This document shows positions 13,401-47,000 of a stretch of DNA of 47,752 bases, piece by piece. The notes below the pieces were generated by a model. That model was not told the DNA's origin. It did no database searches and saw nothing but the letters and a program-made list of their open reading frames with translations. Made by a program: the position numbers and the translations under genes. Source of the stretch: Bifidobacteriaceae bacterium (GTDB taxonomy: Bacteria > Actinomycetota > Actinomycetes > Actinomycetales > WQXJ01). Positions within the stretch are counted from its first letter, which is position 1. Each line of letters begins with the position of its first letter. Location of the stretch: the NCBI GenBank assembly GCA_031272885.1, contig JAISSX010000059.1, positions 70,021 through 117,772 of the forward strand, in the 5' to 3' direction.

Positions 13401-16400
13401 TGGTGCCGGGCGTGGGCGTGCGCCTGGTTGACCTGGGCGGCACCACGCTGGATTCCGACCTGGTGATCACCGAGACGCCCAACGCCTCGGGTTGGTATGA
13501 GACTGGCACCAAGGATTCGTCCAGCTACGGCAAGGTGGTGCTGCATGTCAAGTCTGCCCACGCGGGTGACTATCAGGTAGCGGCCCAGATCCTGCCGGGT
13601 TCGGGTTGGCCTAGCCTGACCAGCCCGGCCAGCTACACGCTGAGCTATGAGTCTGGCGCGCCGGTGGCGGCCAACTCGTGGCTGGTGGAGCCGGCCGCTT
13701 CGGCCAAGGCTGACGGCACCGAGACCCAGACTGTGCTGGCCAAGATCCGGGACAAGAACGGCGACCCGGTGGCGGACGGCACCACGGTGACGTTCACCGT
13801 GCCGGCCGGTCTGACCCCAACCGGCACCCAGACGGCCACCACCACCGGCGGCACCGCCACCTTGACGGTGACCTCCAACACGGACGGCGAGTTCGAGATC
13901 GCCGCCGCCGTGGGTGGCAGCGCCATCAACACAGTCAAGAACAACGCCGAAACCACCACCCAGACCTACAACAAGGCCAAGGTGCACTTCGTCTACGGCG
14001 ACCCGGACCCGGGCAGCTCGGTGCTGACCGTGCCCACCGCTACGGGCACGCCCGGCACCAAGGTGGCGGACGGCATCGCCAAGCACCGCGCCGAAGTCCT
14101 GGTCAAGGACGGTTCCGGCAACGTGGTGCCGGGTGCCACGGTGCTGTTCAGCTACGGGCCCGATGCCGCCCACCTGAGCACGGCCACGGCCGTCTCCGGG
14201 TCCGATGGCGTGGCCTACGTCGAGTTCGGCTCCACCCAGGCCACCACCTACCAGGTGCGCGCCTACATCGGCACCAGCGCCATCAGTTCGGCCGAGGTGT
14301 CCGGTTCGCCGCAGAACGCCCCGTTCGTGGCCGGCCCGCTGGACGAGAGCAAGACCTTGGCCTCCTTCGCGGTGCAAGAGAGCTATGCCCTGGCCAACGG
14401 CACCGCCACCCTGTGGGCCAAGATGACGGCCCAGGACGCCAACGGCAACCCGATCAGCGGCGTGACCCTCAGCTTCAAGCTGACCCAAACCGGTGACGCG
14501 GCCGTCTTCGAACCGCTGGCGACCGGTTTGCGGACCGTCAGCGGCACGTCCGGCGCCGATGGCGTGGTGTCGGTCAACATCGTGTCCGCCTTCGAGGGTT
14601 CGTTCCCGGTGCAGGGCCAGCTTGGCGCTACCACCACCACGCCGAAGAACGTCACGTTCCAGAACAACACGGCGGACGAGGCCAAGTCTTGGTTCACGGT
14701 GGACCGCACGGCCACCAACACCAGCCTGGACAAGGCCATTGCGGACAACAACGATTCCTACACGGTGACCGTCAACCTGCGTGACTCCAACGGTGACCCG
14801 GTCAACGGCATCAGCGCCGTGGTCAAGCTGACCGCCACGGCCTCCGGCGCGGTGACCCAGTACTCGGTCTTCACCGGCGTGGTTTCTGGCCAGGGCGGCA
14901 CGGCCGTCCAGTTGCTGAAGACGCTGGTGGCCGGCACCTACACGGTGACGGTTGAACTGGCCGGTAACCAGATTTCGCTGGATACCGCCAACGCCGCCAC
15001 CAAGTCGAAGTCGGTCGAGTTCGTGGCCGGCCCGCCTTCCAGCCTGACATCCAAGCTGGTCAGCCCGTCCAGCCCGGCCCAGGTGGGCGGCGGCACCCAG
15101 ACGGTCACCGCCCAGGTGCGTGACGCCTACAACAACCCGGTGCCCAACGCTGCGGTGCAGTTCGCCATCCCGGCCAATATCACGGTTGGGCTGGTCGATG
15201 GCCCGGCCTATGTCACGGTCAACACCGGCACCAACGGCAATGCCGAACTGGTGACCACTTCGACCGTGGTGGGCGTCTACAACACGATCACGGCCAGCAC
15301 CGGCGCCATGTCGATCACCGAGGGCAGCCCGGCCCGGGTCGAGTTCATCAACTCGGCCTGCTCGGCCGCCCAGTCCGAGTTCACCATTCCTTCGGCCGGT
15401 CCCACCGGTACCACCACCAAGGTGGCCGGCGTCGGCTTCCACAACCCGACGGTGACGGTGAAGGACGGTAGCGGCAACCTGTGCACGGCCGAGGTCACCC
15501 AGGTGACCTACAAGTACCGCCTTGAGGGCACCACCACCTGGACCGAGCACATCCCGCCGGTCAACACAGTCAACGCGGTGGCCGAATGGTCCAACTGGAC
15601 CGAGACGGTGGCCGGCACCTACGAGGTCCAGGCGTTCTTCGGTGGCCAGCAGGTTGGTACCACCAAGACGGCCATCTTCGTGCCTGATGTGGTCAGCCCG
15701 GGCAACTCTGCCCTGGACGTGTCGGTCAACCCGGCCCTGGCCAACAACGCGGCCATCCACTACGCCAAGGTGGTGGTGCGTGACGCCAACAACAACCCGA
15801 TCGTGGGCCAGGCGGTCACGTTCACCATCGACACGGGTGCCGCCGCGGTGCCCGGCCCGGTAGTCAAGGGCACCACCACCAATACGGCCACTGTCAACAC
15901 GTGTGACCCGGCGGTCGGCGGCGCCCCCACCTGGTGCACCGAGAAGGGCCTGGCCTACGTCGAGTTCACCTCCAGCGAGCCCGGTTCGTTCAGTGTCAGC
16001 GCCACGCTCAGCGCCACCCCGGTGTCCGGTTCGCCCAAGTCGGTCGACTTCACGTCCGGCCCGGCCGATCCGTCCAAGTCCAGTTGGGTCTTGACGCCGG
16101 ACACCACGGTGCCTACGGTCAACAAGCCGGCCAACGGCGCCGACAGCTACAGCCTGACGGCCACCGTCAAGTCCGCGGCGGACATCCTGGTGCCTAACGG
16201 CCCGGTGCGCATCGCCCTGCTTGATCCGTCGGTCTCCGTCAGCCCGGCCCTGACCGGCTTCACCGGCCTGGCCACCAGCACCAACTACGGCACGTTCACC
16301 TGGACCTTGACTTCTACCACCAAGGGCACGTTCACCGGCCAGGTGCAGGTCAACACCGGTACCGACTGGGAGAACGTGGGTGGTCCGTTCACTGTCCGCT

Positions 16401-19400
16401 TCACCAGCGACACGGCCGATGCCGCGTCGTCCTGGTTGATCCAGCCTTCGGCCACGGTGACGGCCGATGGCGTGGCGCAGCACACGGTCACGGCCAAGGT
16501 CTATGACACGCACGGCAACCTGGCGGACAACGGCACGGTGGTGTTCACGCTGCCCAGCGGCGTTTCGCCGACCGGCACCCAGTCGGTCAGCGTGGTGAAC
16601 GGCGTGGCCTCCATCCAGGTCACTTCCACCACGGTTGGCACCTACAACGTGACCGCCAAACTGGATTCGGTCTCCATCAACACGGTCAAGAACGCCAGTG
16701 AAGTCTCGGTGGTGCGCACCAACGGCCAGGTCCAGTTGCCGTTCGATTCGGACGTGCCAGATCCGGACAGCTCGGTTCTGACCATCCCCACCGCTACCGG
16801 CACGCCGGGCACCAAGGTGGCCAACGGCACGGAGAAGCACCGCGCCGAGGTGGCCGTCAAGGACGCCCACAACAACGCGGTGGCCGGGGCCGCGGTCGAG
16901 TTCACCTATGGTCCCGATGCCGCCCACCTGACCACGGTGACGGCCACCTCCGGGTCCGATGGCGTGGCTTACGTCGAGTTCGCCTCCACCCAGGCGGTGG
17001 CGTACACGGTGACGGCCAAGATCGCCGGTGACGAGGTTTCGGGTTCGCCCAAGACGGCCACCTTCGTGGCCGGCCCGCTGGACCCAAGCAAGACGCTGGC
17101 CTCGTTCGCCGTCCAAGAGACGGTGGCCCTGGCCAACGGCAGCCAGCCGTTGTGGGCCAAGATGACGGCCCAAGACGCCTATGGCAACCCGATCAGCGGT
17201 GTCACCATCAGCTTCAAGCTGACCCAGACCGGTGACGCGGCCGTGTTCGCGCCGCTGGCCACCGGCCTGCGGGAGGCCTCCGGTACTTCGGGTGCCGATG
17301 GCGTGGTGTCAGTCGACATCGTCAGCGCTTTCGAGGGCACCTATCCGGTGGTGGGCGTGCTGGGTGCCACCGAAACGGCACCCAAGAACGTCACCTTCCA
17401 GAACAGCACGGCCGATGAGGCCAAGTCTTGGTTTACGGTGGTGCGCACCAGCACCAACGCCAGCCCGGACAAGGCCATCGCGGACGGTGTTGATTCCTAC
17501 ACGGTGACCGTCAACCTGCGTGACTCGAACGGCGACCCGGTGAACGGCATCGGCGCCTTGATCAAGGTGACGGCGGCCGATGGCGCGGTGACGCAATACC
17601 CGGTGGCTTCCGGTGTGGTGTCCGGCCAGGGCGGCACGGCCGTGCAACTGGTCAAGACCACGCTGGCCGGCACCTACACGGTGACGGTTGAGCTGGCCGG
17701 CAACCAGATTTCGCTGGATACCGCCAACGACGCTGTCAAGTCGAAGAGCATCGAGTTTGTGGCGGGTGCGCCCAGCGCCCTGACCTCGTCGTTGACCAGC
17801 CCCTCGGCTCCGGCCCAGGTGGGTGGCGGCACCCAGGTGATCAAGGCGACGGTGAAGGACAAGGACGGCAACCCGGTGTTGGGTACCGCCGTGGTCTTCA
17901 CCATTCCGGCCGATGTTGTGGCCGGCGCCTACACCGGCCCCACCACGGTGACGGTCAACACCGGCACCACGGGCGCGGCGGCCGGCGTGGCCGAGCTGAC
18001 CTTGACCTCGGCCAAGGTGGGCGAATACAACGTGACCGCCAAGGTGGGCGCCATGGACATCACCGTGGGTAGCCCGGCCAAGGCCAAGTTCGTCAACTCT
18101 GACCCGTCGTCCACACAGTCCGAGTTCACCATTCCGACCACCCCGGCCCAGAAGGTCGCGGGCGTCGAATACCACACGCCTCAGGTAGTGGTGAAGGACG
18201 GCAGCGGCAACCTGTACACCGCGGCCGCCGTCACGGTGACGTTCAAGGTCCGCCTGCAGGGTGAGACCACCTGGGCTACCACCAAGACCATCTCCACCAC
18301 CACGGGTACGGCCACCTGGTCCGATTGGACCCAGGACGTGGCCGGCACCTACGAGGTCGAGGCCTCGATCCCGAGTGGCGTGGTAGGTACCACGCTGACG
18401 GCGGTGTTCAAGGCCGGCCCGGCCGATCCGTCCACTTCGGTGTGGCAGACCTCCACCGGCAACGTGCTGGCCGATGATTCGGCCACCCACTTCGCGCGGG
18501 TGACGGTCAAGGACGCCAAGGGCAACGTGGTGGCCGGCGAGCCGGTCACGTTCACGCTGCCGGCCGGCCAGGCGGCCCACTTCACGCCGGGCACGGCCAA
18601 GACCATTACGGTCAACAGCTCCGCCCTGGGCATCGCCGAAGTCAACATCGCGGACGGCACACCCGAGACGGTCACGGTGACCGGTTCGGTGGCCTCGACG
18701 CAGGTGGGCAGCGCCAACCTGGTGTTCGCCACGGACGCGCCATCGGCCCCGGATTCGACGTGGACCATCACGCCGGCCGGCCCGATTACGGCCGATGGCG
18801 TGGCCGCCTACACGGCAACCGTCACGGTCAAGGACTCCTCGGCCGCCCACCTGGTGGTGCCCGGCGCCACGGTCACGTTCAGCGTGCCGGCGGCGGTGCG
18901 CATCACCGAGAACGCGCCGTACACCACCAACAGCTCCGGCCAGGTGACGGTCCACTTCACCAGCGAGGTGCAGGGGATCTTCACGGTCAACGCGCTGATT
19001 GGCGCGGCCAAGATTCCGGCGGCCGATCAGACCATCGAGTTCACGGCCGGCGCCATCGACGGCACGTCGTCGTTCTTGACGGCCCCCAGCACTACGGCCA
19101 CCGCCAACGGCACGGCCGTGCTGAACGTGACCGCGACGGTGAAGGACGCCAAGGCCAACCCGGTCAAGGACGCCTCGGTCCGCTTCACCATCCCGGCCGG
19201 TGTCACCTACCAGCCCACCGCCGGCACGCCGGTGGCTGGGCCCGGCACGGTGACCGTAGCGGTTGACCCGAGCACCGGTGTGGCCACGCTGCCGCTGGTT
19301 TCCACCACCGCGGACACGTACAACGTGACGGCCGAGGCCAAGAAGGCCGCGGACGCCGGTTGGACCGCCATCGTCACCGGTTCGCCGGCGGCGGTGCAGT

Positions 19401-22400
19401 TCGTGGCGGGCGCGGTTGACCCGGCCCATTCGAAGATCTCCAAGGTGGAGACCGGCCCGTTCGTGGCCGGCATCGGCAGCTACACCGTCAAGGTGGAGTT
19501 GTTGGATGTCAACGACAACCCGGTGAAGCAGGCCGGCTTGCCCATCCAGTTCACCTTCACGCTGGGCGCCGAGGTGGTTTCGGCTTCTGCCACCACGAAC
19601 GCCAGCGGTGTGGCCACCACCACCTTCGGCAACGCGAAGTCTGGTGACTGGCAGGGTACGGCCACCTACCAGAGCCAGGCCGTTCAGGTTGGCTCCCCGG
19701 TGGCCTTGCCGTTGACGGCTGGCGTGGCCGATCCCACCAAGTCGACGCTTGAGGTGTCGCAGAACCCGGCCTTGGCCAACAACCTGGCCATCCACTACGC
19801 CAAGGTGGTGGTGCGTGACGCCAACGGCAACCCGATCGCGGGCGAGACGGTGACGGTCGCCATCGACACGGGCGCGGCCGGCGTGCCCGGCCCGGTGGTG
19901 GCGGGTACCAGCAACGCCAGCGCCACCGGTCAAACCTGTGACCCGGCCGCCGCGGGTGCCCCCGCCTGGTGCACCGAGAAGGGCCTGTTCTATGTCGAGT
20001 TCACCTCCAGCGAGCCGGGTTCGTTCAACGTCACCGGCACGCTGGGCGCAGTCCCGGTGAACGGCTCGCCGCAGCAGGTCAGCTACACCACCGGCGCACC
20101 CGATCCGACCAAGTCGAGTTGGACCATCAACCCGGATACGGTCTCCAGCCTGACGTTGACCATCCCGGCCGATGGCACCAGCACCTACACCCTGACGGCC
20201 ACCATTAAGGACGCCGCCAACATCCTGGTGCCTAACGGCCAGGTGCGGATCAGCGGCCTGAACACGGCCGTCACGGTCAGCCCGTCCCTGAGCGGCTCTA
20301 CCGGCCTGCCCACCAGCACCAACTACGGCACGTTCACCTGGACGCTCAAGTCCACCACCAAGGGCGTGTTCACCGGTCAGGTGCAGGTCAGCACCGGCTC
20401 TGCCTGGGCCAACGTGGGCCAGCCGTTCGAGGTCCGCTTCAGTGCGGACACCCCGGACGCGGCCTCCTCGTGGTTGATTGAACCGGCCGCTTCGGCCAAG
20501 GCTGACAGCACCGAGACCCAGACGGTGCAGGCCAAGATCTACGACACGCACGGCAACTTGGCCGATGACGGCACGGTGGTTTCGTTCACCCTGCCGGCCG
20601 GCGTTTCGCCCACCGGCACGCAGACCGCCACCACGGTGAACGGCATCGCCTCGGTGACGGTTACGTCTGGCACGGCGGGCGAGTACAAGGTCAAGGCCAC
20701 CCTGGCCGGCGTCCAGATCGACACGGTCAAGAACAACGCCGAAACCTCCACGGTGGCGTCCAACGGTGAGGCCAAGGTTCACTTCGTCTACGGCGACCCG
20801 GACCCGGATAGCTCGGTCTTGACCATCCCCACGGCCACGGGTACCCCTGGCACCAAGGTGGCCAACGGCACGGACAAGCACCGCGCCGAGGTTCTGGTCA
20901 AGGACGCTTCCGGCAACGTGGTGCCGAACGCCTCGGTCGACTTTAGCTACGGTCCCGATGCCGCCCACCAGACTCCGGTGACGGCCGTCTCCGGGTCCGA
21001 TGGCGTGGCCTACATCGAGTTCGCCTCCACCCAGGCGGTCACCTACACGGTGACGGCCAAGATCGCGGGTGATGAGGTTTCGGGTTCGCCCAAGACGGCC
21101 GGCTTCGTGGCCGGTCCGCTCGATCCGGGCAAGACTTTGAACTCGTTCGAGGTGCAGCAGACCGCGGCCGTGGCCAACGGCTCGCAGACCCTGTGGGCCA
21201 AGATGACGGCGCAGGACGCCAACGGCAACCCGGTCAGCGGCGTGACCTTGAGCTTCAAGCTGACCCAAACCGGTGACGCGGCCGTCTTCGCGCCGCTGGC
21301 TACCGGCCTGCGCGACATCAGCGGTACCTCTGGGGCCGATGGCGTGGTGTCGGTTGACATCGTGTCCGTTTTCGAAGGTTCGTTCCCGGTGGTGGGCGTG
21401 CTGGGTGCCACCCAGACGTCGCCCAAGAACGTCACCTTCCAGAACAACACGGCCGACAAGGCCAAGTCTTGGTTCACGGTGGAGCGCACCAGCACCAACA
21501 CCAGCCCGGATAAGGCCATCGCGGACGGCAATGACTCCTACACGGTGACGGTCTCCCTGCGTGACGCCAACGGCGACCCGGTCAACGGTATCGGCGCGGT
21601 GGTCAAGGTGACCGCGGCGGCCGATGGCTCGGTGACCCAATACCCGGTGGCTTCGGGTGTGGTGTCCGGCCAGGGCGGCACGGCCGTCCAGTTGGTCAAG
21701 TCGACCACCTCCGGTGACTTCACGGTGACGGTTGAGTTGGCGGGCGATCAGATTTCGCTCGACACGGCCAACGCCGCCACCAAGTCGAAGAGCATCGAGT
21801 TCGTGGCCGGGGCGCCATCGTCCTTGACCTCCGAACTGGTTTCGCCCACCGCCCCCGCCCAGGTGGGTGGCGGCACCCAGGTGATCAAGGCGATTGTCAA
21901 GGACGCCCAGGGTAACCCGGTGCCGAACGCCAGTGTGGTCTTCACCATCCCGGCTGATGTCACCGCCGCGGGCGGCACCACGGTGGCCACAAGCGCTACT
22001 GGCGTGGCCGAGCTGACGTTGACCTCCATCAAGGTGGGCGAGTACCCGGTTACCGCCAAGGTGGGCACGCTGGATATTGCCATCGGCAGCCCGGCCAAGG
22101 CCAAGTTCGTCAACTCTGATCCGTCTTCGACGCAGTCCGAGTTCACCATTCCCACCACCCCCACCGAAAAGGTCGCGGGCGTGGAGTACCACACCCCGCA
22201 GGTGGCGGTGAAGGATGGCAGCGGCAACGCCTATACGGCGGCGGCCGTCACGGTGACGTTCAAGGTTCGCCTGCAGGGTGAATCGACCTGGGCCACCACC
22301 AAGACGGTCACCACCAACCCGGCTACCGGCATCGCGCTGTGGTCCGATTGGACCCAGACGGTGGCCGGCACCTACGAGGTCGAGGCCTCGATTCCGAGCG

Positions 22401-25400
22401 GTGTGGTCGGCTCCACGCTGACGGCGGTGTTCAAGGCCGGTGTGGCCGATCCGTCCACGTCGGTGTTCGAAACCTCGACCGGTGACGTGTTGGCCGATGA
22501 CGCGGCGACGCACTACGCCAAGGTGACGGTGAAGGACGCCAACGGCAACCCGGTGGCGGGCGAAGCCGTGACGTTCACGTTGCCGGCCGGCCAGTCGGCG
22601 CACTTCGTGCCCGGCACGGCCAAGACCATCACGGTGACCAGCTCCGCGGCCGGCCTGGCTCAGGTCGCCATTGCCGACGGCACGCCTGAGACGGTGGCGG
22701 TCAGCGCCACGCTGACGGGTGTTGCGGTGGGCAGCGGCAACGTCAAGTTCACCACCGATGCGCCGTCCGCGGCCGATTCGCAGTGGACCATCACGCCGGC
22801 CGGCCCGATTACGGCCGATGGCGTGGCGGCCTACACGGCCACGGTGACGGTGAAGGACTCCTCGCCGGCGCACCTGCTGGTGCCGAACGCGGAAGTGACC
22901 TTCAGCGTGCCGGCGGCGGTGCACATCACCGAGACCGGCCCGTACCGCACCAATACCTCTGGTGTGGTGACGGTTCACTTCACGTCCACCACGCAGGGTG
23001 TCTTCACGGTCAACGCCTTGATCGGTGCGGCCAAGATCCCGGCGGCCGATCAGTCCATCGAGTTCACGGCCGGCGCCATCGACCCGGCCACCTCCAGCCT
23101 GGCCGGCCCCGGCGTCACGGCGACGACCGATGGCGTGGCGGTGCTGAACGTGACGGCCACGGTCAAGGACGCCAAGGGTAATGCGGTCAAGGATGCCTCG
23201 GTCCGGTTCACCATTCCGGCGGACGTCACCTACCAGCCCGCCGCCGGCACGCCGGTGGCCGGGCCCGGCACGGTGACCGTCGCGGTTGACCCGAGCACCG
23301 GCGTGGCCACGCTGCCGCTGGTTTCGACCAAGGCCGGCACGTACAACGTGACGGCCGAGGCCAAGAAGGCGGCGGACTCTACCTGGACGTCGATCGACAC
23401 CGGTTCGCCGGCGCAGGTGCAGTTCGTGGCCGGCGCCATCGACCCGACCCATTCGAAGATCTCCAAGGTGGAGGCTGGTCCGTTCGTGGCCGGCATCGGC
23501 AGCTACACCGTCAAGGTGGAACTGCTGGACGCCAACGACAACCCGGTGAAGCAGGCCGGCCTGCCGGTCCAGTTCACCTTCACGCTGGGTGCCGAGGTGG
23601 TTTCGGCTTCTGCCACCACCAACGCCAACGGCGTGGCCACCACCACCTTCGGCAACACGAAGGCCGGTGACTGGCAGGGTACGGCCACGTACTCCAGCCA
23701 GTCCATCGCGGTGGGCAGCCCGGTGTCGCTGGTGTTGACGGCCGGCGCACCGGATGCCACCAAGTCCACGCTGACGGTGTCTGACAACAACGCCCCGGCG
23801 GACAACACGGCCATCCACTACGCCAAGGTGGTGGTGCGTGACGCCAACAACAACCCGATCGCGGGTGAGGCTGTCACCATCACCATCGCCACCGGCGCCG
23901 CCGCGGTTGACGGCCCCGTGGTGAAGGGCACCACCAATGCCACGGCCACGGTCACCTCGTGTGACCCGGCCGCTGCCGGTGCGCCCACCTGGTGTGATGA
24001 GAAGGGCCTGGCCTACGTGGAGTTCACCTCGTCCGAGCCCGGCACCTTCCAGGTCACCGGCGCCCTGGGCGCCGTCCCGGTGAGCGGTTCGCCGAAGCAG
24101 GTCAGCTTCGTCAGTGGCCCGGCCGATCCGTCCAAGTCGAGTTGGACCATCACCCCGGACACGGCCACCCCCACGGTGAACCTGCCGGCCGATGGCTCCA
24201 GCGCCTACACGCTGACGGCCACCGTCAAGTCTGCCTATGAGATCAAGGTGCCCAACGCCGCCGTGCGTATCACCTCGCTCAGCAGCGACGTGACGGTTGC
24301 CCCGGCCCTCACCGGTTTGACCGGTGAGGCCACCAGCACCAACTACGGCACGTTCACCTGGACGCTCAAGTCCACCACCAAGGGTGAGTTCACGGGCCAG
24401 GTGCAGGTCAACACCGGTACCACCTGGGCCAACGTGGGTGGTCCGTTCACGGTCCGCTTTGTCAGTGACGTGGCCGATCCGGCTTCGTCCTGGCTGGTGG
24501 AGCCCGCCGGTTCGGCCGAGGCCGATGGCGTGGCCACCCAGACCGTGACGGCCAAGATCTACGACGCCCACGGCAACCTGGCGGACAACGGCACGGTGGT
24601 GTTCACGCTGCCGGCCGGCGTTTCGCCCACCGGCACGCAGACCGTGACAGTAGTTAACGGTGTCGCCGCCATCCAGGTGGCTTCGGCCAACGCCGGCACC
24701 TACACGGTGACGGCCAAGCTGGATGGCACGGCCCTGAACACGGTCAAGGATGCGACCGAGGCCACCACGGTGCGGACTAACGGCCAAGTCAAGGTGGTGT
24801 TCGAGGCGGGTGAGGCCAGCGGCCAGAACTCGACCCTGAGTATCCCGACGGCGGCCGCCGGTGCCACCAAGCAGGTTGGCGGCCAGAAGCACCGCGCCGA
24901 AGTCTTGGTCAAGGACGTCAACGGCGGTTCGGTGGTGGCCGGCGCCCCGGTGGTGTTCCAGTGGATCGCGGGCGATCAGTCCGGTCCCATCGGCTCCTCG
25001 TGGACCACGGTCACGCCGCAGGTGCTGAGTGGCGCCGATGGCGTGGCGGCCTACGAGTTTGCCGCTCCGGCCAACCAGGCCGGCTGGGTTTGGGTCCAGG
25101 CGTTTGTGATTGTCAACGGCACGCCACAGGCCGTGGGCAACCCGCAGCAGGTCAAGGGCGCCGAGTTCGTGGCCGATCCGAACCCGGATCCGGACAAGAC
25201 GGCCGCCACCTTCGAGACCTTCACGGGTGAGGTGCTGAACGACGGCGTCGAAACCTCGTGGGCCCGCCTGGTGGTGACCGACCAGTACGGCAACGGCATC
25301 CCGGGTGTCAGCGTCACGTTCACGCTGCCCGCCACCCAGGCGGGCACGCTGGGCACGCCGGTGTTTGTCAACGGTGCCGCCAAGACGGTGACGGTGACCA

Positions 25401-28525: not shown

Positions 28526-28540
28526 TCAAATCCAATAGGA

Positions 28541-28640: not shown

Positions 28641-28741
28641 CTACCTTCGTCTACCCCGAATCTAGGACTTTAGGACCACTCAAATTCGCCTTTAGCGTAT
28701 TTTCGCGCCTGACGCACCGTTTCGCTGGCGGCTCACTAGGT
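28641..28741. other. Intergenic stretch without gene
   Basis: This roughly 100-base, slightly AT-richer stretch lies between the palindromes and the promoter-like region of giant gene 2. I see no gene, no strong hairpin and no recognised binding site. Confidence 0.4.
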
Positions 28742-35000: not shown

Positions 35001-38000
35001 ATTCGACCGGTCTGGCCCAGTTGACCGCCACCGCCGTGCCTTCGGGCGTGGTCAGCGCCTTCACGGCTGTCAGCGGAAGCCCCGGCGTCTACCGCGCCAA
35101 TATCACCACCACGCTGTCCGGCGAGAAGACCGTCACGGTCACGGCGCCCGGCGCAACTGGTGGGACGTTCCAAGTCAGCCCGGCCACGGCCGGCGCCAAC
35201 AAGGTCAACTTCATCGGTGGCCTGCCGGTCAATCCGCTGGGCACCTTCGACACCACCACGGGCAACCGCCTGATCGATGGCGTGGCCTTCCACGAGGTGT
35301 GGGTCGATTTCAAGGACGCCAACGGCAACCCGGCCACCTGCACCTCCAACGGCACCACCAGCGGCACCATCGTGCCCTGCCAGGTGACGTTCGAGCTGTT
35401 GAATGAGACCACGGCCAGCGGCATCGCCACCACTGGCGCCCGCTTCGACAACGCCAACACCGGCACGTTCACCAAGACCGTGCAGGCCGATGCCAACGGC
35501 CGCGCCCTGGCCAAGGTCTACTCGATCTTCGCCAGCGACCTGACCCTGGGCGGCTTCCCGGTGGACGCCAAGATCGACACCTCCACCTCGGTGGTCAAGC
35601 GGATTCCGTTCCGGCCTGACACGGCTAGCGCCAGCCACTCCACCTTCACGGTGACCCCGGCGCCGCCCACCACCAAGGTGGCCGACGGCATCGAGTACTT
35701 CAGCGGCCAGATCATCATGAAGAGCGCCAACGACAGCCTGGTGCCCGGCGCCACGGCCGCCTTCTCCATCTGCAAGGTGGACGGCGGTAGCTGCGTCGCC
35801 ACCAGCGACGTCACGGTGTCCGATCCAGGCGGCGGCCCCGCCGTCTTGGTGGCCTCCAACCCGGCGGCCGAGATCAACGTCAAGTTCACCAGCACCAAGG
35901 CTGCCACCTACCGGGTGACCGCCACCATCGCCGGTGACCCGATTGGCGCCGCGGCCCCGTACTACAAGGAGATCACCTTCGTGGCCGGCCCGCCCAGCGG
36001 TGCGGCCTCGCAACTGATCTGGACCACCGCCACCGCAGTGGCCAACGGCAGCGACACCAAGTCCATCCAGGCCGAGGTGAAGGACGCCAACGGCAACCTG
36101 GTGGCCGATGGCACCACGGTGCTGTTCTCGATTCCGGCCGATACCAAGGTTGGTTCCGTCAGCGGGGCCGCCACCATCACCAAGACCACCACCAACGGCC
36201 TGGCCGAGATCCTGGTGACCTCGGAGAAGGCCGGCACCTACAACGTCACCGCCACGGTGGGTGGCCAGAACATCACCGGCAACTCGCCGGCCCAGCCGCA
36301 GTTCGTGGCCGGCCCGGCCGATGCCAGCACGTCGGTTCTGTCCATCACCACCACCGGTGACAAGGTGGCCAACGGCAGCGACTACCACACTGCCCAGGTT
36401 GAGATCAAGGATGCCCAAGGCAACGCCACGGTCAACTCCACCACCACGGTGCGGTTCTGCTGGTCCATCGACGGCGGCGCCGAGACCTGCGAGAACGTGA
36501 CGTCTTCGGTGGTGGGTAGCCAGTCGTTGGCGACCAAGAACATTACCTCCACCAAGGCCGGCACGCTGCTGGTCAAGGCGACCATCAACGGCAACTCGGT
36601 CACTCCGCCCGCCGGCGTCACCGCCAACTTCATCCCGGGCACGCCCGATGCCGGTGTCTCGACCCTTGAGGTGTCCACCGGCAAGGTGGCCAACAACGGC
36701 ACCGCCACGCACTGGGCCAAGGCCACGGTGAAGGACGCCAACGGCAACGTCATCTCGAACGCCAACGTGACGTTCACGGTGACCGGCAACGCCCAGATCA
36801 CGGGCGCCGGCGGCACCGGCCAGAGCAAGGTGGTGGCGACGTCCATCGCCGGCCTGGCCGAGATCACCATCACCGACATCACGGAAGAGACCGTGACGGT
36901 GACGGCCACCATCACCCAGGGCACCATCGGCACCGCGACGGTTGAGTTTGGCCCGTCCAACGTTGATGCCGGCAACTCCACCTTCACCGTTTCGCCCACC
37001 CCGCCGCCGGCCCTGGCCGCCAGCTCGGGTGGCACGTATTACACGGCCACGGTGACGTTGCGTGACGCCTCGAACGCCATCATCGCCAACACGCCGGTGA
37101 ACTTCACGTTCAGCGGCACCGGCCCGCAGTTGGTGGGCGGCGGCACCACCGCCACCACCGACAGCACCGGTGTGGCCACGGCCCAGATCTACTCGCAGGT
37201 GAAGGGTGACTTCACGGTCACCGCCGCCTCGGGTGGCATCAACCTGGTCAACCCGTCCCCGGCCGCCAAGCCGATCAACTTCGACGCCGGCGCCATCGAT
37301 GCCGGCCACTCGACCTTGACGGCCCAGACCGGCGCGGCTACGGCCAACGGCACCGCCACGCGTTGGGTTGAGGCCCTGGTGCGTGATCAGTTCGACAACC
37401 CGGTTTCGGGTGCCACGGTGCAGTTCACCTTCCCGTCCGATACGTCCCTGGCCTCCGCTTCCACCAACCCGGTCACCACCGGCACGGACGGCAAGGCCCG
37501 CATCGAACTGACCTCCACCAAGAAGGGTGACTACACGGTCAGCGCCACCGCCGCCAAGGGCGGCAGCCCGGTGGCCATCACGCCCGCCGTGACGGTCAGC
37601 TTCGAGGCCGGCCCGGCATCGGCCGGTAACTCCACCCTGTCCGTGCCCACCGCCGCCGGCGGCGGCACCAAGGTGGCGGATGGTATTGAGAAGCACCAGG
37701 CCAAGGTGGTGGTGAAGGATGCCAACGGCAACCTGGTCGATGCCGGTGTGGCCGTGTCGATGTCGGCCGCTCCGCCGGCCGGCTCCGGTCTGTCCACCCA
37801 GACCTGCACCGCCTACACGGATGCCAACGGCGAGGCGCTGTGCGAGTTCGCCAGCACCAAGGCCGGTGACCACACCATCCGGGCCACCATCGGTGGCACC
37901 GAAGTGGGCACGGGCAGCCCCGCCACGGCCACCTTCGTGCCGGGCGCCATCGACGCCGGCCACTCCACCTTCACGGTTAGCTCGGACGTGACCGTCAACA

Positions 38001-41000
38001 ACGGCATCGCCCAGCACAAGGCCACCGTGATTGTGCGTGACCAGTACGACAACGTGATCGAGAACGCCGCGGTGCGCTTCACCATCGACGCCGGTTTGAC
38101 CACCATCCCCGGCCCGGTGCTGAACAACACCATCGCGGGCGGCAACACCACCAAGAACACCACCACCGGCACCGACGGCTCGGTTGAGACGCCGATCGTG
38201 TCCGAGGAAGAGGGCACGTTCACGGTGGAGGCCTTCATTGGCCCGGCCGCGCTGACGCTGGGCACCAAGACGGTCAGCTTCACGCCTGGCCCGGCCTCGG
38301 TGGCCAACTCGAGCTGGACCAAGAGCCCGGCCGGCCCGATTACGGCCGGTACGGCGACGTCCGATCCGGAATACACCATCACGGTCACCGTCAAGTCGGC
38401 CGACAACCTGCTGGTTGGTGGTAGCCAGGTGCGCCTGTCCGACCTGGGCGGCACCACGCTGGATTCCGACCTGGTGATCAGCGAACCGCAGGATGGCTCG
38501 GGCTACTGGCTGACGGGCACCAAGGGCACCACCACCTATGGCCAGGTGGTGCTGCACGTCAAGTCTGCCCACGCCGGTGACTACCCGGTGGTGGCCCAGA
38601 TCCTGCCTGGCGATGGTTGGCCCGATCTGGTCAACCCGGCCAGCTACACGCTGAGCTATGAAGCCGGAGCGCCGGTGGCGGCCAACTCGTGGCTGGTTGA
38701 GCCGGCCGCTGGCGCCCTCGCCAACGGCACCGAAACGCAGACCGTGCTGGCCAAGATCCGGGACAAGAATGGCGACCCGGTGGCGGACGGCACCACGGTG
38801 ACGTTCACCGCGCCATCGGGCGTTTCGCCTACCGGTACCCAGACGGCCACCACCACGGGCGGCACCGCCACCCTGACGGTGACCTCCACCTCGGCGGGTC
38901 AGTACAACATCACCGCCACGGTGGGTGGCAGCGCCATCAACACGGTCAAGAACAACGCCGAAACCTCCACGGAGCGCACCAACGGCAACGCCCAGGTGAA
39001 CTTCAGTGCCGGCGGCGCCTCGGCCGTCGACTCCGTGCTGTCGGTGCCTTCCGCCGGCTCGGACGGCCTGACCACTAAGGTGGCGAACAACATCCAGAAG
39101 CACCGGGCCGAGGTCCTGGTCAAGGACGTGGGCGGCCACAACACGCTGGCCGGCGAGTCCGTGACCTTCACCTATGGTCCCGATGCCGCCCACCTGACCA
39201 CGGTTACGGCCGTGTCCGGGTCCGATGGCGTGGCCTTCGTCGAGTTCGCCTCGACGCTGGCCGCCACCTACGAGGTGCGCGCCTACATCGGTGCCAACAA
39301 CACCTCCAGCACCGACGAGGTGACCGATTCGCCGAAGAGCGCCACGTTCGTGGCCGGTCCGCTGGATCCGGACAAGACCAAGACCTCGCTGCAGGTGGAA
39401 GAGACCCCGGCCGCGGCCAACGGCACACAGACCCTGTGGGTCAAGATGACGGCCCAGGACGCCTACGGCAACCCGGTCAGCGGCGCTACGTTGGGCTTCA
39501 AGCTGACCGACACCTCCACCTACAGCGCCGTCTTCCAGCCACTGGCCAGCGGCGCGCACACCACCAGCGGCACCTCTGGGTCCGACGGCGTGGTGCAGGT
39601 GTACGCGGTCTCCGCCTTCGAGGGCACGTTCCCGGTGGTCGGCACCGTTGGTGCCTCCGAGTCCGCACCGAAGAACCTGGTGTTCCAGAACAACACGGCC
39701 GATCCAACCAAGTCTTGGTTCACGGTGGTGCGCACCAGCACCAACGCCAGCCCGGACAAGGCCATTGCGGACAACGCCGATTCCTACACGGTGACCGTCA
39801 ACCTGCGTGACACCAACGGTGACCCGGTCAACAACATCGGTGCGGTGGTCTGGATGACGTCGGCCGCCGATGCCTCGGTTGCCACCTCCTACTCCGTTAC
39901 CACCGGCGTGGTTTCGGGCCAGGGTGGCACGGCCGTGCAGTTGCTCAAGACCACGGTGGCGGGCAGCTACATCGTGACGGTTGAACTGGCCGGCGACCAG
40001 ATTTCGCTGGACGCCGCCAACGCCGCCACCAAGTCCAAGACGGTCGAGTTTGTGGCCGGCCCGTGGAGCCAGTCGACCTCGTCGCTGGTCAGCCCGTCCA
40101 CCCCGGCTCAGGTCGGTGGCGGCACGCAGACCATCACGGCCCAGTTGCGCGACCAGTACAACAACCCGGTGCCCAACGCCGCGGTGCAGTTCGCTATCCC
40201 GGCGGACATCACGGTTGGTTCGGTCAACGGCCCGGCCTATGTCACGGTCAACACTGGCACCAACGGCAACGCCGATCTGGTGACGACTTCGGCGGTGGTG
40301 GGTGAATACAACATCACCGCCCAGGTGGCCGGCGTCTCCATCACCACCGGCAGCCCGGCCAAGGCCAAGTTCATCAACTCGGCCTGCTCGGCGGCTCAGT
40401 CCGAGTTCACCATTCCTTCGGCTGGGGCCGATGGCCTGACCACCAAGGTGGTTGGCGTCGGTTACCACAACCCGACGGTGACGGTGAAGGACGGTAGCGG
40501 CAACCTGTGCACCGCCGAGGTCACCCAGGTGACCTACAAGTACCGCCTGCAGGGCGGCACCACGTGGACCGAGCACCTGCCCGCCATCAACACCGTCAAC
40601 GCCGTGGCCGAATGGGCCAACTGGACCGAGACGGTGGCCGGCACCTACGAGGTGCAGGCGTTCTTCGGTGGCCAGCAGGTTGGTACCACCAAGACGGCCA
40701 TCTTCGTGCCGGATAGCGTCAGCCCGGGTACCTCCACCCTGACGGTGTCGGTCAACGCGGCCCTGGCCAACAACACGGCTACCCAGTACGCCAAGGTTGT
40801 GGTGAAGGACCAGTACGGCAACCCGGTGGTTGGCCAGGCGGTCAACATCGCCATCGGGACCGGCGAAGCCTACATCGACGGCCCGGTGGTCCAAGGCACC
40901 ACCAGCCCCACGGCCACGGTCACCTCGTGTGATCCGGCCGCGGCCGGTGCGCCCACCTGGTGCGACCAGAAGGGCCTGGCCATGGTGTACTTCACCTCGT

Positions 41001-44000
41001 CGGAACCCGGCGGCTTCCAGGTGACGGCCACCATCGGCGGCAGCGCCGTGGGCGGCTCGCCCGCACAGGTGTCGTTCGAATCCGGCCCGGCCGATCCAAC
41101 CAAGTCGAGTTGGGTCATCAGCCCAGACACGGTGGCTAGCCCCACCGTGACCGTGCCGGCTGACGGTTCTTCGGCCTACTCGTTGACCACCACCATCAAG
41201 AGCGCCGCCGAGATTCTGGTGCCGAACGCCGCCGTGCGGATCGTCAACCTGAACTCGGCCGTGTCCGTGGCCCCGGTGGCAGCCAGCTACTACACCGGCA
41301 CCCCGGCGGATGGTGCGTCCAAGTACGGCAAGTACACCTGGACGCTGACCTCTACCACCAAGGGTGTGTTCACCGGCCAGGTGCAGGTAGCCACTAGCGG
41401 CACCACGTTTGAAAACGTGGGCCAGCCGTTCACGGTTCGGTTCAGCGCCGATGTGGCCGATGCGGCTTCGTCGTGGTTGATCGAGCCGGCCGGCACCGCG
41501 CGGGCCGACAACACCGAGACCCAGACCGTCCAGGCGAAGATCTACGACGCCCACGGCAACCTGGTTGAGGACGGCACCGTGGTGACGTTCACGCTGCCCA
41601 GCGGTGTTTCGCCGACGGGTACGCAGACGGCCACCACCACCAACGGCATCGCCTCCATCTCAATGACGTCCGGTACGCAAGGTACCTACGAGGTGGGTGC
41701 GTCCGTGGGTGGCGCCGCCATCAACACGGTCAAGAACAACGCCGAGACCACCACGCAGAGCTACAACAAGGCCAAGGTGCCGTTCGCGTTCGGTGATCCC
41801 GATCCGAACAACTCGGTGCTGACGGTGCCCACCGCCGGCTCGGACGGCAATACCACCAAGGTGGCCAACGGGCTGGAGAAGCACCGGGCCGAGGTTCTGG
41901 TCAAGGACTCCACCAACAACCTGGTGCCCGGCGCGTCCGTGACCTTCACCTATGGTCCCGATGCCGCCCACCTGACCACGGTTACGGCCGTGTCCGGGTC
42001 CGATGGCGTGGCCTTCGTCGAGTTCTCCTCCACCGTGGCCACCACCTACACGGTGACTGGCGAGATCGCCGGTGACGCGGTGTCCGGTTCGCCCAAGACG
42101 GCCAAGTTCGTGGCCGGCCCGGTTGATCCGACCAAGACGCTGAACTCGTTCGAGGTGCAGCAGACGGCCGCCCTGGCCAACGGTTCGGACGCCCTGTGGG
42201 CCAAGATGACGGCCCAAGACGCCAACGGCAACCCCGTCAGCGGCGTCAACCTGGGCTTCAAGCTGACCGACACCGCGGCCAACACCGCCGTGTTCCAGCC
42301 TCTGGCCACCGGCAGCAAGACCGCCAGCGGCACCTCTGGCGCCGACGGCGTGGTGCAGGTCTACGTGGTGTCCGTCTACGAAGGCCACTTCCCGGTGGTC
42401 GGCGTGATGGGCGCCAGTGAGACCTCGCCCAAGACCGTCTGGTTCCAGAACAACACGGCCGATCCGGACGAATCGTGGTTCACGGTGCAGCGCACCTCCA
42501 CCAACGTCAGCCCGGACAAGGCCATTGCCGATGGCAATGATTCCTACACGGTGACCGTCAACCTGCGTGACGCCAACGGCGACCCGGTCAACGGCATCGG
42601 CGCGGTGGTCAAGGCCACCCCGGTGGCCGGTGGCACCACGCTGCAGTACTCGGTCATCACCGACGTGGTGGGTGGTCAAGGCGGCACGGCTGTGCAGCAG
42701 ATCAAGACCACCGTGGCCGGCCAGTACGTGGTGACGGTTGAACTGGCGGGCGATGCCATTTCGCTCGACACCGCCGGTGCCACTACCACGTCGAAGACGG
42801 TTGAGTTCGTGGCCGGGGCGCCATCGTCCCTGACCTCGTCGCTGACCAGCCCGGCCAGCCCCGCTCAGGTGGGTGGCGGTACCCAGGTGATCACGGCCAC
42901 GGTCAAGGACGCCAACGGTAACCCGGTGCTGGGCACCAACGTGGTCTTCACCATCCCGGCCGATGTCACGGCCGCGGGTGGCACCACGGTGGCCACCGGC
43001 ACCACGGGCGCCAGCGCCGGTGTGGCCGAACTGACCCTGACCTCGAACAAGGTCGGCGAGTACAACGTGACCGCCAAGGTGGGCACCATGGACATCACCG
43101 TGGGCAGCCCCGCCAAGGCCAAGTTCGTCAACTCCGATCCGTCCGCTGGGCAGTCCGAGTTCACCATCCCCACCACCCCGGCCCAGAAGGTGGCCGGTGT
43201 GGAGTACCACACCCCGCAGGTGGCGGTGAAGGATGGTTCGGGCAATGCCTACACGGCGGCGGCCGTCACGGTGACGTTCAAGGTCCGCCTGCAAGGCGCG
43301 TCGACTTGGGCCACCACCAAGACGGTGCAGACCAACACCACCACCGGTATCGCCTTGTGGTCCGACTGGACCCAGGACGTGGCCGGCACCTACGAGGTCG
43401 AGGCTTCGATCTCGAGCGGTGTGGTTGGCACCACGCTGACGGCGGTGTTCAAGGCCGGCCCGGCCGATCCGGCCACGTCGGTCTTCGAGACGTCGACCGG
43501 TGACGTGTTGGCCGATGACGCCTCGACGCACTACGCCAAGGTGACGGTGAAGGACGCCAAGGGCAACGTGGTGGCCAATGAGCCGGTCACGTTCACGTTG
43601 GATCCGGCCAAGTCGGCCCACTTCGTGCCCGGCACGGCCAAGACCATCACCGTGAATTCTTCGGCCGCCGGCATTGCCCAGGCCGACATTGCGGACGGCA
43701 CGCCTGAGACGGTCCAGGTGACCGGCTCGGTGGCCTCGACGCAGGTCGGTTCCGGCAACGTCAAGTTCACCACCGATGCGCCTTCGGCGCCGGATTCGTC
43801 GTGGACCATCACGCCGGCCGGCCCGATCACGGCCGATGGTGTGGCCAGCTACACGGCCACGGTGACGGTGCGCGATTCGTCGCCATCGCACCTGGTGGTG
43901 CCGAACGCCACGGTTGACTTCTCCGTGCCGCCGGCCGTCCACATCACCGAGTCCGGGCCTTACGTGTCCAACAGTTCCGGCATTGTGACGGTCCACTTCA

Positions 44001-47000
44001 CCTCGACCACGCAGGGTGACTTCACGGTCAACGCCCTGATCGGCACCGGCAAGATTCCGGCGGCCGACCAGGTGATCGGCTTCCGGGCCGGCGCGGTTGA
44101 CGGCACCAAGTCCAGCCTGGCTGGTCCTGGCGTGACCGCTACGGCCGATGGCGTGGCCACCCAGGTGGTGACCGCCACGGTCAAGGATGCCTACGACAAC
44201 CCGGTGACCGATGCCACGGTGCGGTTCGCCATTCCGGCCGATACCAAGGCCGGTACGGTGACCGGCCCGGCCACGGTTGACGTGACCGTCAACTCCAATG
44301 GCGTGGCCACGTTGGCCCTGACCTCCACCAAGGCCGGTCAGTACAACGTCACCGCCGGGGCCAAGAAGCCGGCCGATGCCGCCTACACCAACATCACAAC
44401 CGGTTCGCCGGCCGTGGTGGAGTTCGTGGCCGGCGCCATCGATCCGACCCATTCGAAGATCTCGAAGGTTGAGACCGGTCCGTTCGTGGCCGGTGCCGCC
44501 AGCTACACCGTCAAGGTGGAACTGATGGATGCCAACGACAACCCGGTCAAGCAGGCCGGTTTGCCGATCCAGTTCACGTTCACGCTGGGCGCCGACGTGG
44601 TGCCGGCCTCGGCCAGCACCAATGCCAACGGCGTGGCCACCACCACCTTCGGCAACACGAAGGCCGGTGACTGGCAAGGCACCGCGACCTATCAGTCGCA
44701 GGCCATTGTGGTTGGTTCGCCGGTGTCGCTGGTCTTCACGGCCGGCGCGGCCGATCCGACCAAGTCCACCCTTGAGGTGTCGAACAACCCGGCGCAGGCC
44801 GACAATACGGCCACGCACTACGCCAAGGTTGTGGTGCGTGACGCCAACAACAACCCGATTGTGGGCGAGTCCGTCACCATCACCATCTCGACCGGCGCCG
44901 CCACGGTGCCCGGCCCGGTGGTGCAGGGTACGACCACTGCCACGGCCACGGTCGCCTCGTGCGATCCGGCCGCCGCGGGGGCCCCGGCCTGGTGCGACAC
45001 CAAGGGCCTGGCGATGGTGCGGTTCACCTCCAGTGAGCCCGGCACGTTCGACGTCACTGGCACGCTTGGTAGCACCCCGGTCAGCGGTTCGCCGGCCCAG
45101 GTGAGCTTCACCACCGGCGCGCCCGATCCGTCGAAGTCCAGCCGCGTCATCGACCCGGATACGGACGCCAACGCCACGCTGAGCATCGAAGCCAATGGCA
45201 CCGCCGCCTACACGGTGACGGCCACCATCAAGGATGCCGCTGAAGTGCTGGTGCCGAACGCCTCGGTGCGGATCAACGCCCTTAGCTCCGATGTCACGGT
45301 GACGCCGGCGCTGCAGGGCTTGACCGGTGTGCCGCTGGATGGTGTGGACAAGTACGGCAAGTTCACTTGGACGCTCAAGTCGCTCAAGGAGGGCACGTTC
45401 ACCGGCCAGGTGCAGGTGAATACGGGCTCCACTTGGGCCAATGTGGGCCAGCCGTTCGAGGTCCGGTTCCACGGCGGCGCGCCGTCGGGTGCCAACTCCG
45501 AACTGTCCAGCCCCAACATGTCGGCCCGGGCTGACGGCACGATGACGCAACTGGTGATGGCGACCTTGAAGGATGCCAACGGCAACGTGGCCACCTGCTG
45601 GTCCGGCACCACGCAGGTGGGTTGCCCGGTGGTGTTCAGCCTGCCCAGCCAGACCACGCCGACCGGTAGCCAGTCCGTCACGGCGGCCCTGACCGGCATC
45701 GCCGTCATCTCGATGACCTCCACCACGGTGGGTACGTTCGACGTCACCGCCACGGTGTCCGGTAGCCCGATCGAGAAGGCCGATGGCGTGGCCGCGGCCA
45801 GTGGCACGGCCGCCAAGGCCCACGTCCAGTTCACCGACGCCACGGCGCCGGGTGAGCCCGTGGTCAACCCGTCCAACGGCCAGCACATCGACGGTCACGT
45901 CGATCCGGCCGATCTGGCCGATGCCGCAAACGGCGAGTTGACGGTCAAGATCACCGACCCGGATACGGGCACCGTGATTGCGACCTGCCCGGTGCGGGCC
46001 GATGGCACCTTCGATTGCCCGATCACCCCGGCCCTGGCCGACGGTGAAGAGGTCGAAGTCACCATCGTGGATGCCTCCGGCAACGAGTCCGACCCGACCG
46101 ACGTTGTGATCGACGCTGTGGCGCCGAACGAGCCGGTGGTCGACCCGTCCAACGGCCATCAGGTGACCGGCCACGTTGATCCGGCTGACCTGACGGACGC
46201 CAGCAACGGCGACCTGGAAGTGGTCATCATCGACGAGGCGACCGGCAACGAGATCACGCGTTGCCCGGTGGCGGCCGATGGCACGTTCAACTGCCCGCTG
46301 AACCCGGCCCTGCCTGACGGCACCGAGGTTAACGTGGTGATCGAGGATCCGGCCGGTAACCAGTCCGACCCGACTCCGATCACGGTTGACGCCACGCCGC
46401 CTGGCCGCCCAACGGTTGATCCGTCCAACGGTGACGATGTCACCGGCCATGTGGCCGCCGGCGATCTGGCCGACGCCGCTGCCGGTGAACTCGAAGTCGT
46501 GGTGAAGGACAAGGCCACTGGTCAAGAGATCGCGCGTTGCCCGGTCGCGGCCGATGGCACGTTCGATTGCGACATCACGCCGCCGATCACCCAGAACGGC
46601 AAGGAGATCACGGTGGCCATCGAAGATGCCGCCCACAATGTCTCCACGCCGGTCACGGTGGTGGTTGACACGCTGGCGCCGAACGAGCCGGTGGTCAACC
46701 CGTCCGACGGCACGCACGTTGATGGCCATGTCGATCCGGCTGACGTGACCGACGCCGCCAAGGGTGACCTGACGGTTGAGGTGCGTGACCCGGTGACGGG
46801 TGACGTCATCGCCACCTGCCCGGTGCGCGCCGATGGCACGTTCGATTGCCCGATCAGCCCGGCGCTGCCTGATGGCACCGAGGTTGACGTGGTGATTGTG
46901 GACAAGGCCGGCAACGTCTCCGATCCGACTGAGGTGACGGTTGACGCCGTGGCTCCTGGCGAGCCGACGGTCAATCCGTCCGACGGCAAGCATGTTGACG

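What the first reader, a model, noticed from the sequence alone, without database searches (positions are those of the whole stretch)
13655..45475. Nested super-unit architecture: 8-12-12 modules in gene 1, 8-12 in gene 2
After 19 collinear modules, each protein has an 8-module block lacking a four-module cassette, then complete 12-module blocks of nearly constant length (1,346, 1,340 and 1,342 residues). The shared short block suggests the 8/12 layout predates gene duplication. Gene 1 then gained, or gene 2 lost, one 4-kb unit. Fibre length would change by quanta of 12 domains while keeping module phase.
Basis: seen in the sequence. Interest (0 to 1): 0.8.

Follow-up and report, generated by a model that had tools for sequence, protein, structure and literature searches.

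The report
Giant surface protein, nested domain repeats
Two neighbouring genes encode giant, probably wall-anchored bacterial surface fibres whose stalks are built from immunoglobulin-like domains in a fixed order of 12, itself made of three older blocks of 4, much like the super-repeats of the muscle protein titin.

Summary
Gene 1 (8,034 aa) and gene 2 (cut by the contig end) share 19 collinear Ig-like modules, then blocks of 8-12-12 and 8-12. In a tree of 96 modules from four paralogues of this genome, modules group by super-unit position. The 12-module unit is three diverged copies of a 4-module block, [abcd][efij][klgh]; this period-4 order was reached by 1-6 of 20,000 shuffles in five tests. 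The register runs from module 10 to 56 of gene 1. The 8-module block lacks i-j-k-l, exactly one register length, and two orthologues in other species differ by exactly four modules. The unit occurs in 14 of 18 genomes of the family; a quicker scan of 198 genomes of the order matched only that family. In other genera the tandem pair of units is ancient; genes carry 0-2 complete units. Whether gene 1 gained or gene 2 lost a unit is unresolved. Best reading: LPXTG-anchored fibrillar adhesins with invasin-type stalks built as a higher-order repeat; a new variant of a known kind. A titin-like ruler function is not shown.

The parts
4421..28525 (+). gene 1, giant surface protein, probably wall-anchored, 8,034 aa
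   Evidence: open reading frame; Big_1, Invasin_D3, Big_6, Gram_pos_anchor matches
4421..7021 (+). gene 1 head: hydrophobic N-terminus, unassigned domain, SdrD_B-like, SpaA_4-like
   Evidence: SdrD_B 24.3 bits, under its cut-off; SpaA_4 35.4 bits, over; fold prediction failed (pLDDT 44.7)
7022..13660 (+). gene 1 modules 1-19, collinear with gene 2; modules 10-19 in the 4-module register
13661..16420 (+). gene 1 block 1, 8 modules abcdefgh (two 4-module lengths; lacks i-j-k-l)
16421..20458 (+). gene 1 block 2, 12-module super-unit abcdefijklgh
20459..24478 (+). gene 1 block 3, 12-module super-unit abcdefijklgh
24479..26311 (+). gene 1 terminal tract, five modules A B G J E, a tract also seen in other genera
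26312..28405 (+). gene 1 wall-proximal Big_6/Big_13 repeats and spacer
28406..28525 (+). LPFTG, hydrophobic stretch and arginine-rich tail (sortase anchor)
   Evidence: sequence; Gram_pos_anchor 19.5 bits, cut-off 20; three sortase matches over the cut-off in the genome
29048..47752 (+). gene 2, paralogue, 6,235 aa to the contig end (very likely continues on contig C13)
29048..32002 (+). gene 2 head, of the type of the C24 paralogue rather than of gene 1
32003..38674 (+). gene 2 modules 1-19
38675..41461 (+). gene 2 block 1, 8 modules abcdefgh
41462..45484 (+). gene 2 block 2, 12-module super-unit abcdefijklgh
45485..45778 (+). gene 2 terminal tract, one P1-type module, nearest to the last (53%) and then the first (46%) terminal module of gene 1
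45779..47752 (+). gene 2 Big_6/Big_13 repeats, cut by the contig end

Best explanation
Genes 1 and 2 encode giant fibrillar surface proteins of a Gram-positive actinobacterium. Each has an N-terminal head, a long stalk of invasin-type Ig-like modules, a short tract of Big_6 repeats next to the wall, and an LPXTG-type anchor for sortase. The stalk is a higher-order repeat with three levels. The first is a 4-module block of types P1-P2-P3-P4. The second is a 12-module super-unit made of three diverged 4-module blocks, [abcd][efij][klgh]. The third is tandem super-units, followed by a terminal tract. Length changed by duplication or loss of whole modules that mostly keep the register: one 12-module unit, or one 4-module length. 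The first, 8-module block is a super-unit that lost i-j-k-l, joining the first half of the second 4-module block to the second half of the third. Shown: the modules, the order, the 4-register, the conservation across genera, a clean four-module difference between two orthologues, the anchor motif and sortases. Inferred: that it is exported and wall-anchored, that the stalk holds the head away from the cell, that the head binds something, and that recombination between in-register copies made the length changes. Also inferred: the layout keeps neighbouring modules unlike each other (32% identity) while copies 12 modules apart stay alike, which would limit misfolding between neighbours.
For: Position labels. 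The period-4 statistic was reached by 6, 1, 4, 1 and 1 of 20,000 shuffles in five data sets; periods 3 and 6 are not significant in any, period 5 not in the two where it was tried, and period 2, implied by 4, is. Each position's best partner is in phase for 7, 11 and 9 of 12 positions in the three sets. Modules 10-19 and the five terminal modules of gene 1 fall in register, 15 of 15. L083 matches L065 module by module except for exactly four missing modules, E F C D. Of 758 confidently labelled adjacent pairs in the family, 686 are in register; of 155 junctions outside the canonical order, 83 are, against 45.7 in shuffles (0 of 5,000). Super-unit in 14 of 18 family genomes, same order in other genera. 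U1 and U2 of other genera form separate clades, L062_U2 excepted. Stalk fold: klgh predicted all-beta, pLDDT 87.3, nearest invasin and FdeC. Anchor and sortases. Adjacent identity 32%, maximum 45% in gene 1.
Against: The 4-register is not universal. Modules 1-9 do not follow it (2 of 9); the start at module 10 was chosen after seeing this, and over all 24 gene-1 modules outside the blocks 17 are in register. Margins for modules 11 and 15 are small. In the tree, b, d, f and l do not join their phase-mates. Other genera have blocks C D I J G H and runs of A modules that break the register, so pairs of modules also act as units; L066 and L065 differ by one module. Genes 3 and 4 lack a-b in block 1, a difference of two. 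The head has no assigned adhesive domain and its fold prediction failed. Gram_pos_anchor is 0.5 bits under its cut-off in gene 1. Junction counts are not independent, because orthologues share junctions. Low adjacent identity follows from ordered duplication and need not reflect selection; shuffled module orders reach a mean as low in 145 of 5,000 for gene 1 and 516 of 5,000 for gene 2.
Confidence: 0.82

Rival explanations
1. One reading: the 12-module super-unit is the basic quantum; gene 1 simply gained, or gene 2 lost, one such unit after the genes duplicated.
For: Blocks of 12 are real and gene 1 has one more. Gene-1 blocks 2 and 3 are sisters in the best trees (80/65, 61/52).
Against: The 12-unit resolves into three 4-module blocks. 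Genes 1 and 2 differ by 16 modules, 12 plus a 4-module difference in the terminal tract. Sister support is weak and alternatives are not rejected.
Confidence: 0.12
2. Titin-like ruler: each of the 12 positions has its own ligand or neighbour, and the super-unit sets a physical spacing along the fibre.
For: Position identity is kept across genera at 37-54% between window units and U2 of other genera, against 31% between different positions in a sample of 3 x 3 units. Titin A-band super-repeats show the same positional similarity (PMC10665226, passages).
Against: No position is consistently more conserved than the others: rankings correlate little between unit sets (r 0.11 window/U1, -0.02 U1/U2, 0.27 window/U2; 0.48 for window against window-U2, which share sequences). 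Heads differ while stalks stay alike, which suits a spacer.
Confidence: 0.1
3. Concerted evolution alone: in-register gene conversion between old equivalent stalks keeps positions alike; there was no recent unit duplication.
For: b and c of gene 1 tend to cluster by gene while e and f cluster by block. Synonymous third-position identity among the complete units of genes 1 and 2 is 51-85%, the same range as the collinear modules, 57-81%. Short blocks of genome G016 cluster with that genome's own units.
Against: It does not explain the different numbers of units (0 to 2 per gene), nor the U1/U2 clades across species.
Confidence: 0.3
4. Assembly artefact: units were duplicated or merged by the assembler.
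For: Draft genome of 81 contigs; gene 2 and the C4 paralogue end at contig ends.
Against: C37 and C13 overlap by exactly 119 bases, which suggests a 119-base assembly word. The longest exact repeat among the four genes is 91 bases and within gene 1 is 55, so units are told apart. The same architecture occurs in other genomes.
Confidence: 0.03

Closest known systems
Fibrillar adhesins of Gram-positive bacteria (LPXTG-anchored; PMC8286594, passages)
   Same: N-terminal head, stalk of tandem Pfam stalk domains, C-terminal sortase motif.
   Different: Stalk order is a conserved 4 x 3 x n higher-order repeat; very large size; no recognised adhesive domain in the head.
Periscope proteins (PMC8201768, PMC9704523; passages)
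   Same: Wall-anchored stalks whose length is a number of repeated domains.
   Different: Periscope neighbours are nearly identical (82-100% in Sgo_0707); here neighbours are 32% identical and the alike copies lie 12 apart.
Titin A-band super-repeats (PMC10665226, passages)
   Same: Multi-domain super-repeat of Ig-fold modules; domains at the same position are more alike than neighbours.
   Different: Bacterial, one domain class, 12 positions built of 4; no partner filament known; no privileged position found.
Nebulin and other repeats expanded several domains at a time (PMC1553488, passages)
   Same: Duplication unit of several domains (seven in nebulin).
   Different: Two nested levels and conservation across bacterial genera.
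Intimin/invasin/FdeC Ig stalks (1CWV, 4E9L)
   Same: Module fold and Pfam families Big_1 and Invasin_D3.
   Different: LPXTG-type anchor of a Gram-positive protein; no inverse-autotransporter barrel seen in the head scans.

Membership tests
Gram-positive fibrillar adhesin | stalk of tandem known stalk domains | tested here: met
   11 Big_1 and 11 Invasin_D3 stretches in window 13655-17638; predicted all-beta fold
Gram-positive fibrillar adhesin | C-terminal sortase motif and sortases in the genome | tested here: met
   LPFTG + hydrophobic stretch + RRRRR; Gram_pos_anchor 19.5 bits against a cut-off of 20, so just under; 3 sortase matches over the cut-off; LPFTG also on C13, the probable end of gene 2
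Gram-positive fibrillar adhesin | adhesive domain at the N-terminus | tested here: inconclusive
   no adhesive Pfam or NCBIfam model; only SdrD_B-like and SpaA_4 stretches; short PDB match to SdrD; fold prediction poor
Gram-positive fibrillar adhesin | export and display on the cell surface | not testable with these tools
   only the hydrophobic N-terminus and anchor are seen in the sequence
Periscope protein | adjacent repeats of high identity (80% or more) | tested here: not met
   adjacent identity mean 32%, maximum 45% in gene 1 modules 10-56
Periscope protein | repeat number varies between strains | not testable with these tools
   one genome per species; between species
Higher-order (super-)repeat of titin type | domains alike by super-repeat position | tested here: met
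Higher-order (super-)repeat of titin type | position-specific conserved binding sites or spacing matched to a partner | tested here: inconclusive
   whole-module conservation by position shows no consistent favourite; surface clusters and spacing were not examined
Intimin/invasin inverse autotransporter | N-terminal outer-membrane beta-barrel | tested here: not met
   no barrel family in Pfam scans of either head

The most novel reading that the evidence does not exclude
A bacterial counterpart of titin's super-repeats: a family-wide conserved 12-address stalk, grown from a 4-module ancestor, in which module position matters for function (for instance a fixed orientation every four modules along a twisting rod), so that stalk length evolves mainly in register-preserving steps.
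Probability: 0.2. Interest if true: 0.85.

Novelty: new variant of a known kind. Interest (0 to 1): 0.62.

Why it matters
Periscope-type bacterial stalks vary in length through nearly identical neighbouring domains, which breaks the rule that neighbours should differ to avoid misfolding. Here a bacterial family shows the opposite solution: a long stalk in which neighbours stay unlike and the repeated unit is a block of 4 or 12. It gives a bacterial case of titin-like repeat evolution with several independent duplications to compare, and a set of natural constructs for testing whether ordered, unlike neighbours fold and resist force better than identical ones. My literature searches listed no paper that I could tell reports such a higher-order Ig stalk in bacteria; they cover only the library held, and most listed papers were seen as listings only.

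Tried and rejected
My own first label of the terminal tract as abcde was wrong: profiles place it as A B, then I- or G-like, J-like, and E- or K-like, A B G J E with family profiles; the two 'broken' labels come from this.

A 6+6 half-unit model (abcdef + ijklgh) was considered and dropped: period 6 is not significant.

The idea that modules 8-19 are an intact older 12-unit was tested and left open: they form a long branch of their own; modules 10-19 are in register, 8-9 are not (8 is).

The idea that the short block of genome G016 is orthologous to block 1 of the window genome was tested and not supported: its modules cluster with that genome's own units, so the same cassette was lost twice or the copies were homogenised within each genus.

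A consistently more conserved position was sought and not found.

Head fold: AlphaFold with three sequences gave pLDDT 44.7; no fold search was run on it.

Full report
WHAT IS THERE. The window is contig C37:70021-117772 of a 2.95 Mb draft genome of 81 contigs and ends with that contig. It holds two tandem giant genes on the + strand: gene 1, 4421-28525, 8,034 aa, and gene 2, 29048 to the end, 6,235 aa open. A BACON-domain protein (575-2830) and a SAICAR synthetase gene (2931-4013) lie before them. One genome of the same family (G005) has a contig of the same length and encoded protein as NCBI record JAIRTF010000296.1, titled a Bifidobacteriaceae MAG. In a paper on termite-associated Bifidobacteriaceae (PMC11707648, passages) a term search found no 'adhesin', 'giant' or 'surface protein'.

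CHECK OF THE OBSERVATION. Iterated profile search split the stalks into 56 and 40 modules. All-against-all comparison gives 19 collinear modules, then 8-12-12 and 8-12 as described, with unit lengths 1,346, 1,340 and 1,341 aa. The same genome has three more members: C24 (gene 3, 5,707 aa, complete), C4 (gene 4, 4,120 aa, cut by its contig end) and a short three-module protein on C69. Gene 3 is 18 modules + cdefgh + abcdefijklgh + a (its first module is weak and was dropped in later labelling); gene 4 is 8 + cdefgh + bcdefijklgh + ab, then cut.

MODULES GROUP BY POSITION. In a tree of 96 modules from genes 1-4 (modules before block 1, tail repeats and C69 left out) all 12 labels together need 11 changes, the minimum, against 72.6 for shuffles (0 of 200). 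Ten labels are single groups; d and e are broken only by terminal modules that I had labelled wrongly.

THE DEEPER LEVEL. Deep branches of that tree join a with e and k, c with i and g, and h with j (support 83-94; b, d, f and l do not join phase-mates). I tested this as a period-4 pattern in the order a b c d e f i j k l g h. With mean alignment scores, 6 of 20,000 shuffles of position order reach the observed value. With profile-profile scores from family alignments 1 of 20,000 does, and there are only 15,400 distinct partitions. Restricted sets give 4 (window genome only), 1 (first units of other genera) and 1 (second units of other genera) of 20,000, with the best partner of a position in phase for 7, 11 and 9 of 12 positions. 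Period 2, which period 4 implies, is reached by 34-179 of 20,000; periods 3 and 6 are not significant, nor is 5 where tried. Modules 10-19, not used to define the register, fall P3 P4 P1 P2 P3 P4 P1 P2 P3 P4, and the five terminal modules P1 P2 P3 P4 P1: 15 of 15. Modules 1-9 do not follow (2 of 9), so 17 of 24 outside the blocks are in register, and the start at module 10 is a choice made afterwards; margins for modules 11 and 15 are small. On this reading 47 consecutive modules of gene 1 keep one register. The 8-module block abcdefgh is two 4-module lengths: the missing i-j-k-l starts at P3 and ends at P2, as an in-register exchange between the second and third 4-module blocks would leave. 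The terminal tracts of gene 2 (one module, nearest E 53%, then A 46%) and gene 3 (one module, nearest A 54%) each have four modules fewer than that of gene 1.

AGE AND SPREAD. A search with gene-1 block 2 matched 14 of 18 genomes of the family at E 1e-30 or better. In 198 genomes drawn from the order, 11 matched, all in the same family; at least 180 of the 198 belong to other families. That scan scored only three first-look candidates per genome, so weaker matches could be missed. I fetched 40 stretches and labelled modules by position profiles. The order abcdefijklgh recurs in other genera at 38-50% identity, in tandem pairs in L052, L053, L054, L055, L056, L062, L063 and L067; L060 has a second one broken by an extra module. 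Among 16 genes with head and anchor end seen, my counter gives two complete units in 7, one in 6 and none in 3; in all 45 fragments the maximum is two (it allows two mismatches, and L065 and L066 are really ten-module units). First units of different species form one clade and second units another, except L062_U2, so that tandem pair is older than those species. All blocks of the window genome form one clade, on the side of the second units (98/97), and block 1 of its four genes is a clade of its own (100/100). Grouping the blocks of gene 1, or those of genes 1 and 2, is rejected (p-AU 7e-6, 1e-9), while gain in gene 1 versus loss in gene 2 cannot be decided (p-AU 0.31 and 0.25 for the alternatives). 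Genome G016 has the same short cdefgh block, but its modules cluster with that genome's own units.

LENGTH CHANGES AND THE REGISTER. Three related genes in different species have heads 60-63% identical (L065 with L083 and L066). L083 matches L065 one to one over all 16 of its modules except that modules 7-10 of L065, E F C D, are absent: exactly one register length. L066 differs from L065 by a single module, against the rule. Of 758 confidently labelled adjacent pairs in the family (margin of 8 bits or more, gap under 40 aa; weaker labels dropped), 686 are in the 4-register. Of 155 junctions outside the canonical order 83 are, against 45.7 in shuffles, and 118 keep odd-even alternation, against 91.7 (both 0 of 5,000). 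These junctions are not independent. Exceptions are runs of A modules (11, 9 and 9 in L064, L061, L086) and CDIJGH blocks, so two-module steps also occur.

IS IT AN ASSEMBLY ARTEFACT? The longest exact repeat among genes 1-4 is 91 bases, within gene 1 it is 55. The end of C37 and the start of C13 overlap by exactly 119 bases, so C13, which carries 668 aa of Big_6-like repeats and an LPFTG anchor, very likely continues gene 2. Units are thus distinguishable at the assembly's word length, though that length is inferred from the overlap.

WHAT IT DOES. Stalk modules match Big_1 and Invasin_D3. A predicted klgh segment is all-beta with pLDDT 87.3; its nearest solved structures are invasin and FdeC. 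The tail has Big_6/Big_13 repeats and an LPXTG-type anchor, and the genome has three sortase matches over the cut-off. The head is unassigned apart from SdrD_B-like and SpaA_4 stretches, and its fold prediction failed. Heads and stalks have different histories: heads pair gene 1 with gene 4 and gene 2 with gene 3 (gene 2-gene 3 62-74% over the first 700 aa of gene 2), whereas modules 2-19 of genes 1 and 2 are 66-90% identical. This fits exchangeable heads on a shared stalk. In gene 1, modules 10-56, adjacent modules are 32% identical (maximum 45%), modules 4 apart 37% and 12 apart 54% on average. That fits the rule that neighbouring repeats diverge to avoid misfolding (PMC4660218, abstract start in listing), which Periscope proteins break (PMC8201768, passages). 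Conservation is spread over positions without a consistent favourite, which speaks, weakly, against a titin-like set of specific addresses and for a spacer.

COMPARISON WITH WHAT IS KNOWN. Expansion by several domains at a time is known, for example seven in nebulin (PMC1553488, passages), and titin's A-band has super-repeats with positional similarity (PMC10665226, passages). Large bacterial Ig stalks are known; a review gives 2-47 repeats for the intimin/invasin family (PMC9704523, passages). I found no report of a nested, position-conserved super-unit in a bacterial surface stalk in six searches: searches listed no papers; two searches listed papers seen as listings except PMC9704523 and PMC1553488; one search listed two on mucus, of which the one opened (PMC3257693) names a super-repeat only in a reference on a human mucin. 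I therefore class it as a new variant of a known kind.

Noticed in passing
window 155-371 and 2838-3018: Short intergenic repeats containing ACGGAACCGTCCCC; 99 exact copies in the genome against 0 for the reversed control pattern, several of them near contig ends.
   Followed up: partly
window 4421-7021 and 29048-32002; L009; L010: Head and stalk of the giant genes have different relatives: heads pair gene 1/gene 4 and gene 2/gene 3, stalks pair gene 1/gene 2, as if heads were exchanged.
   Followed up: partly
L013 2803-10158: Neighbouring 2,451-aa protein with papain-like peptidase, lectin-like, LRR and BACON matches, next to the BACON protein at window 575-2830.
   Followed up: no
G000 contig C59, about 137300-147300, minus strand: Another giant open frame (3,644 aa) whose stretches match the Big_6/Big_13 tail of gene 1 at 32-36% identity.
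   Followed up: no
L064, L061, L086: Runs of 11, 9 and 9 A-type modules, with neighbours up to 69% identical: a part that looks more like a Periscope stalk.
   Followed up: partly
L085: Stalk with tandem E F I J 4-module blocks instead of the 12-module unit.
   Followed up: no
modules g (window units, second and partly first units), i (first units) and l (second units): Cysteines, about two per module, are almost confined to these positions, and which of i and l carries them differs between unit types.
   Followed up: no
window 17309-28201 and 41660-47752, minus strand: Very long antisense open frames (3,630 and 2,030 aa), probably a by-product of GC-rich codon use.
   Followed up: no
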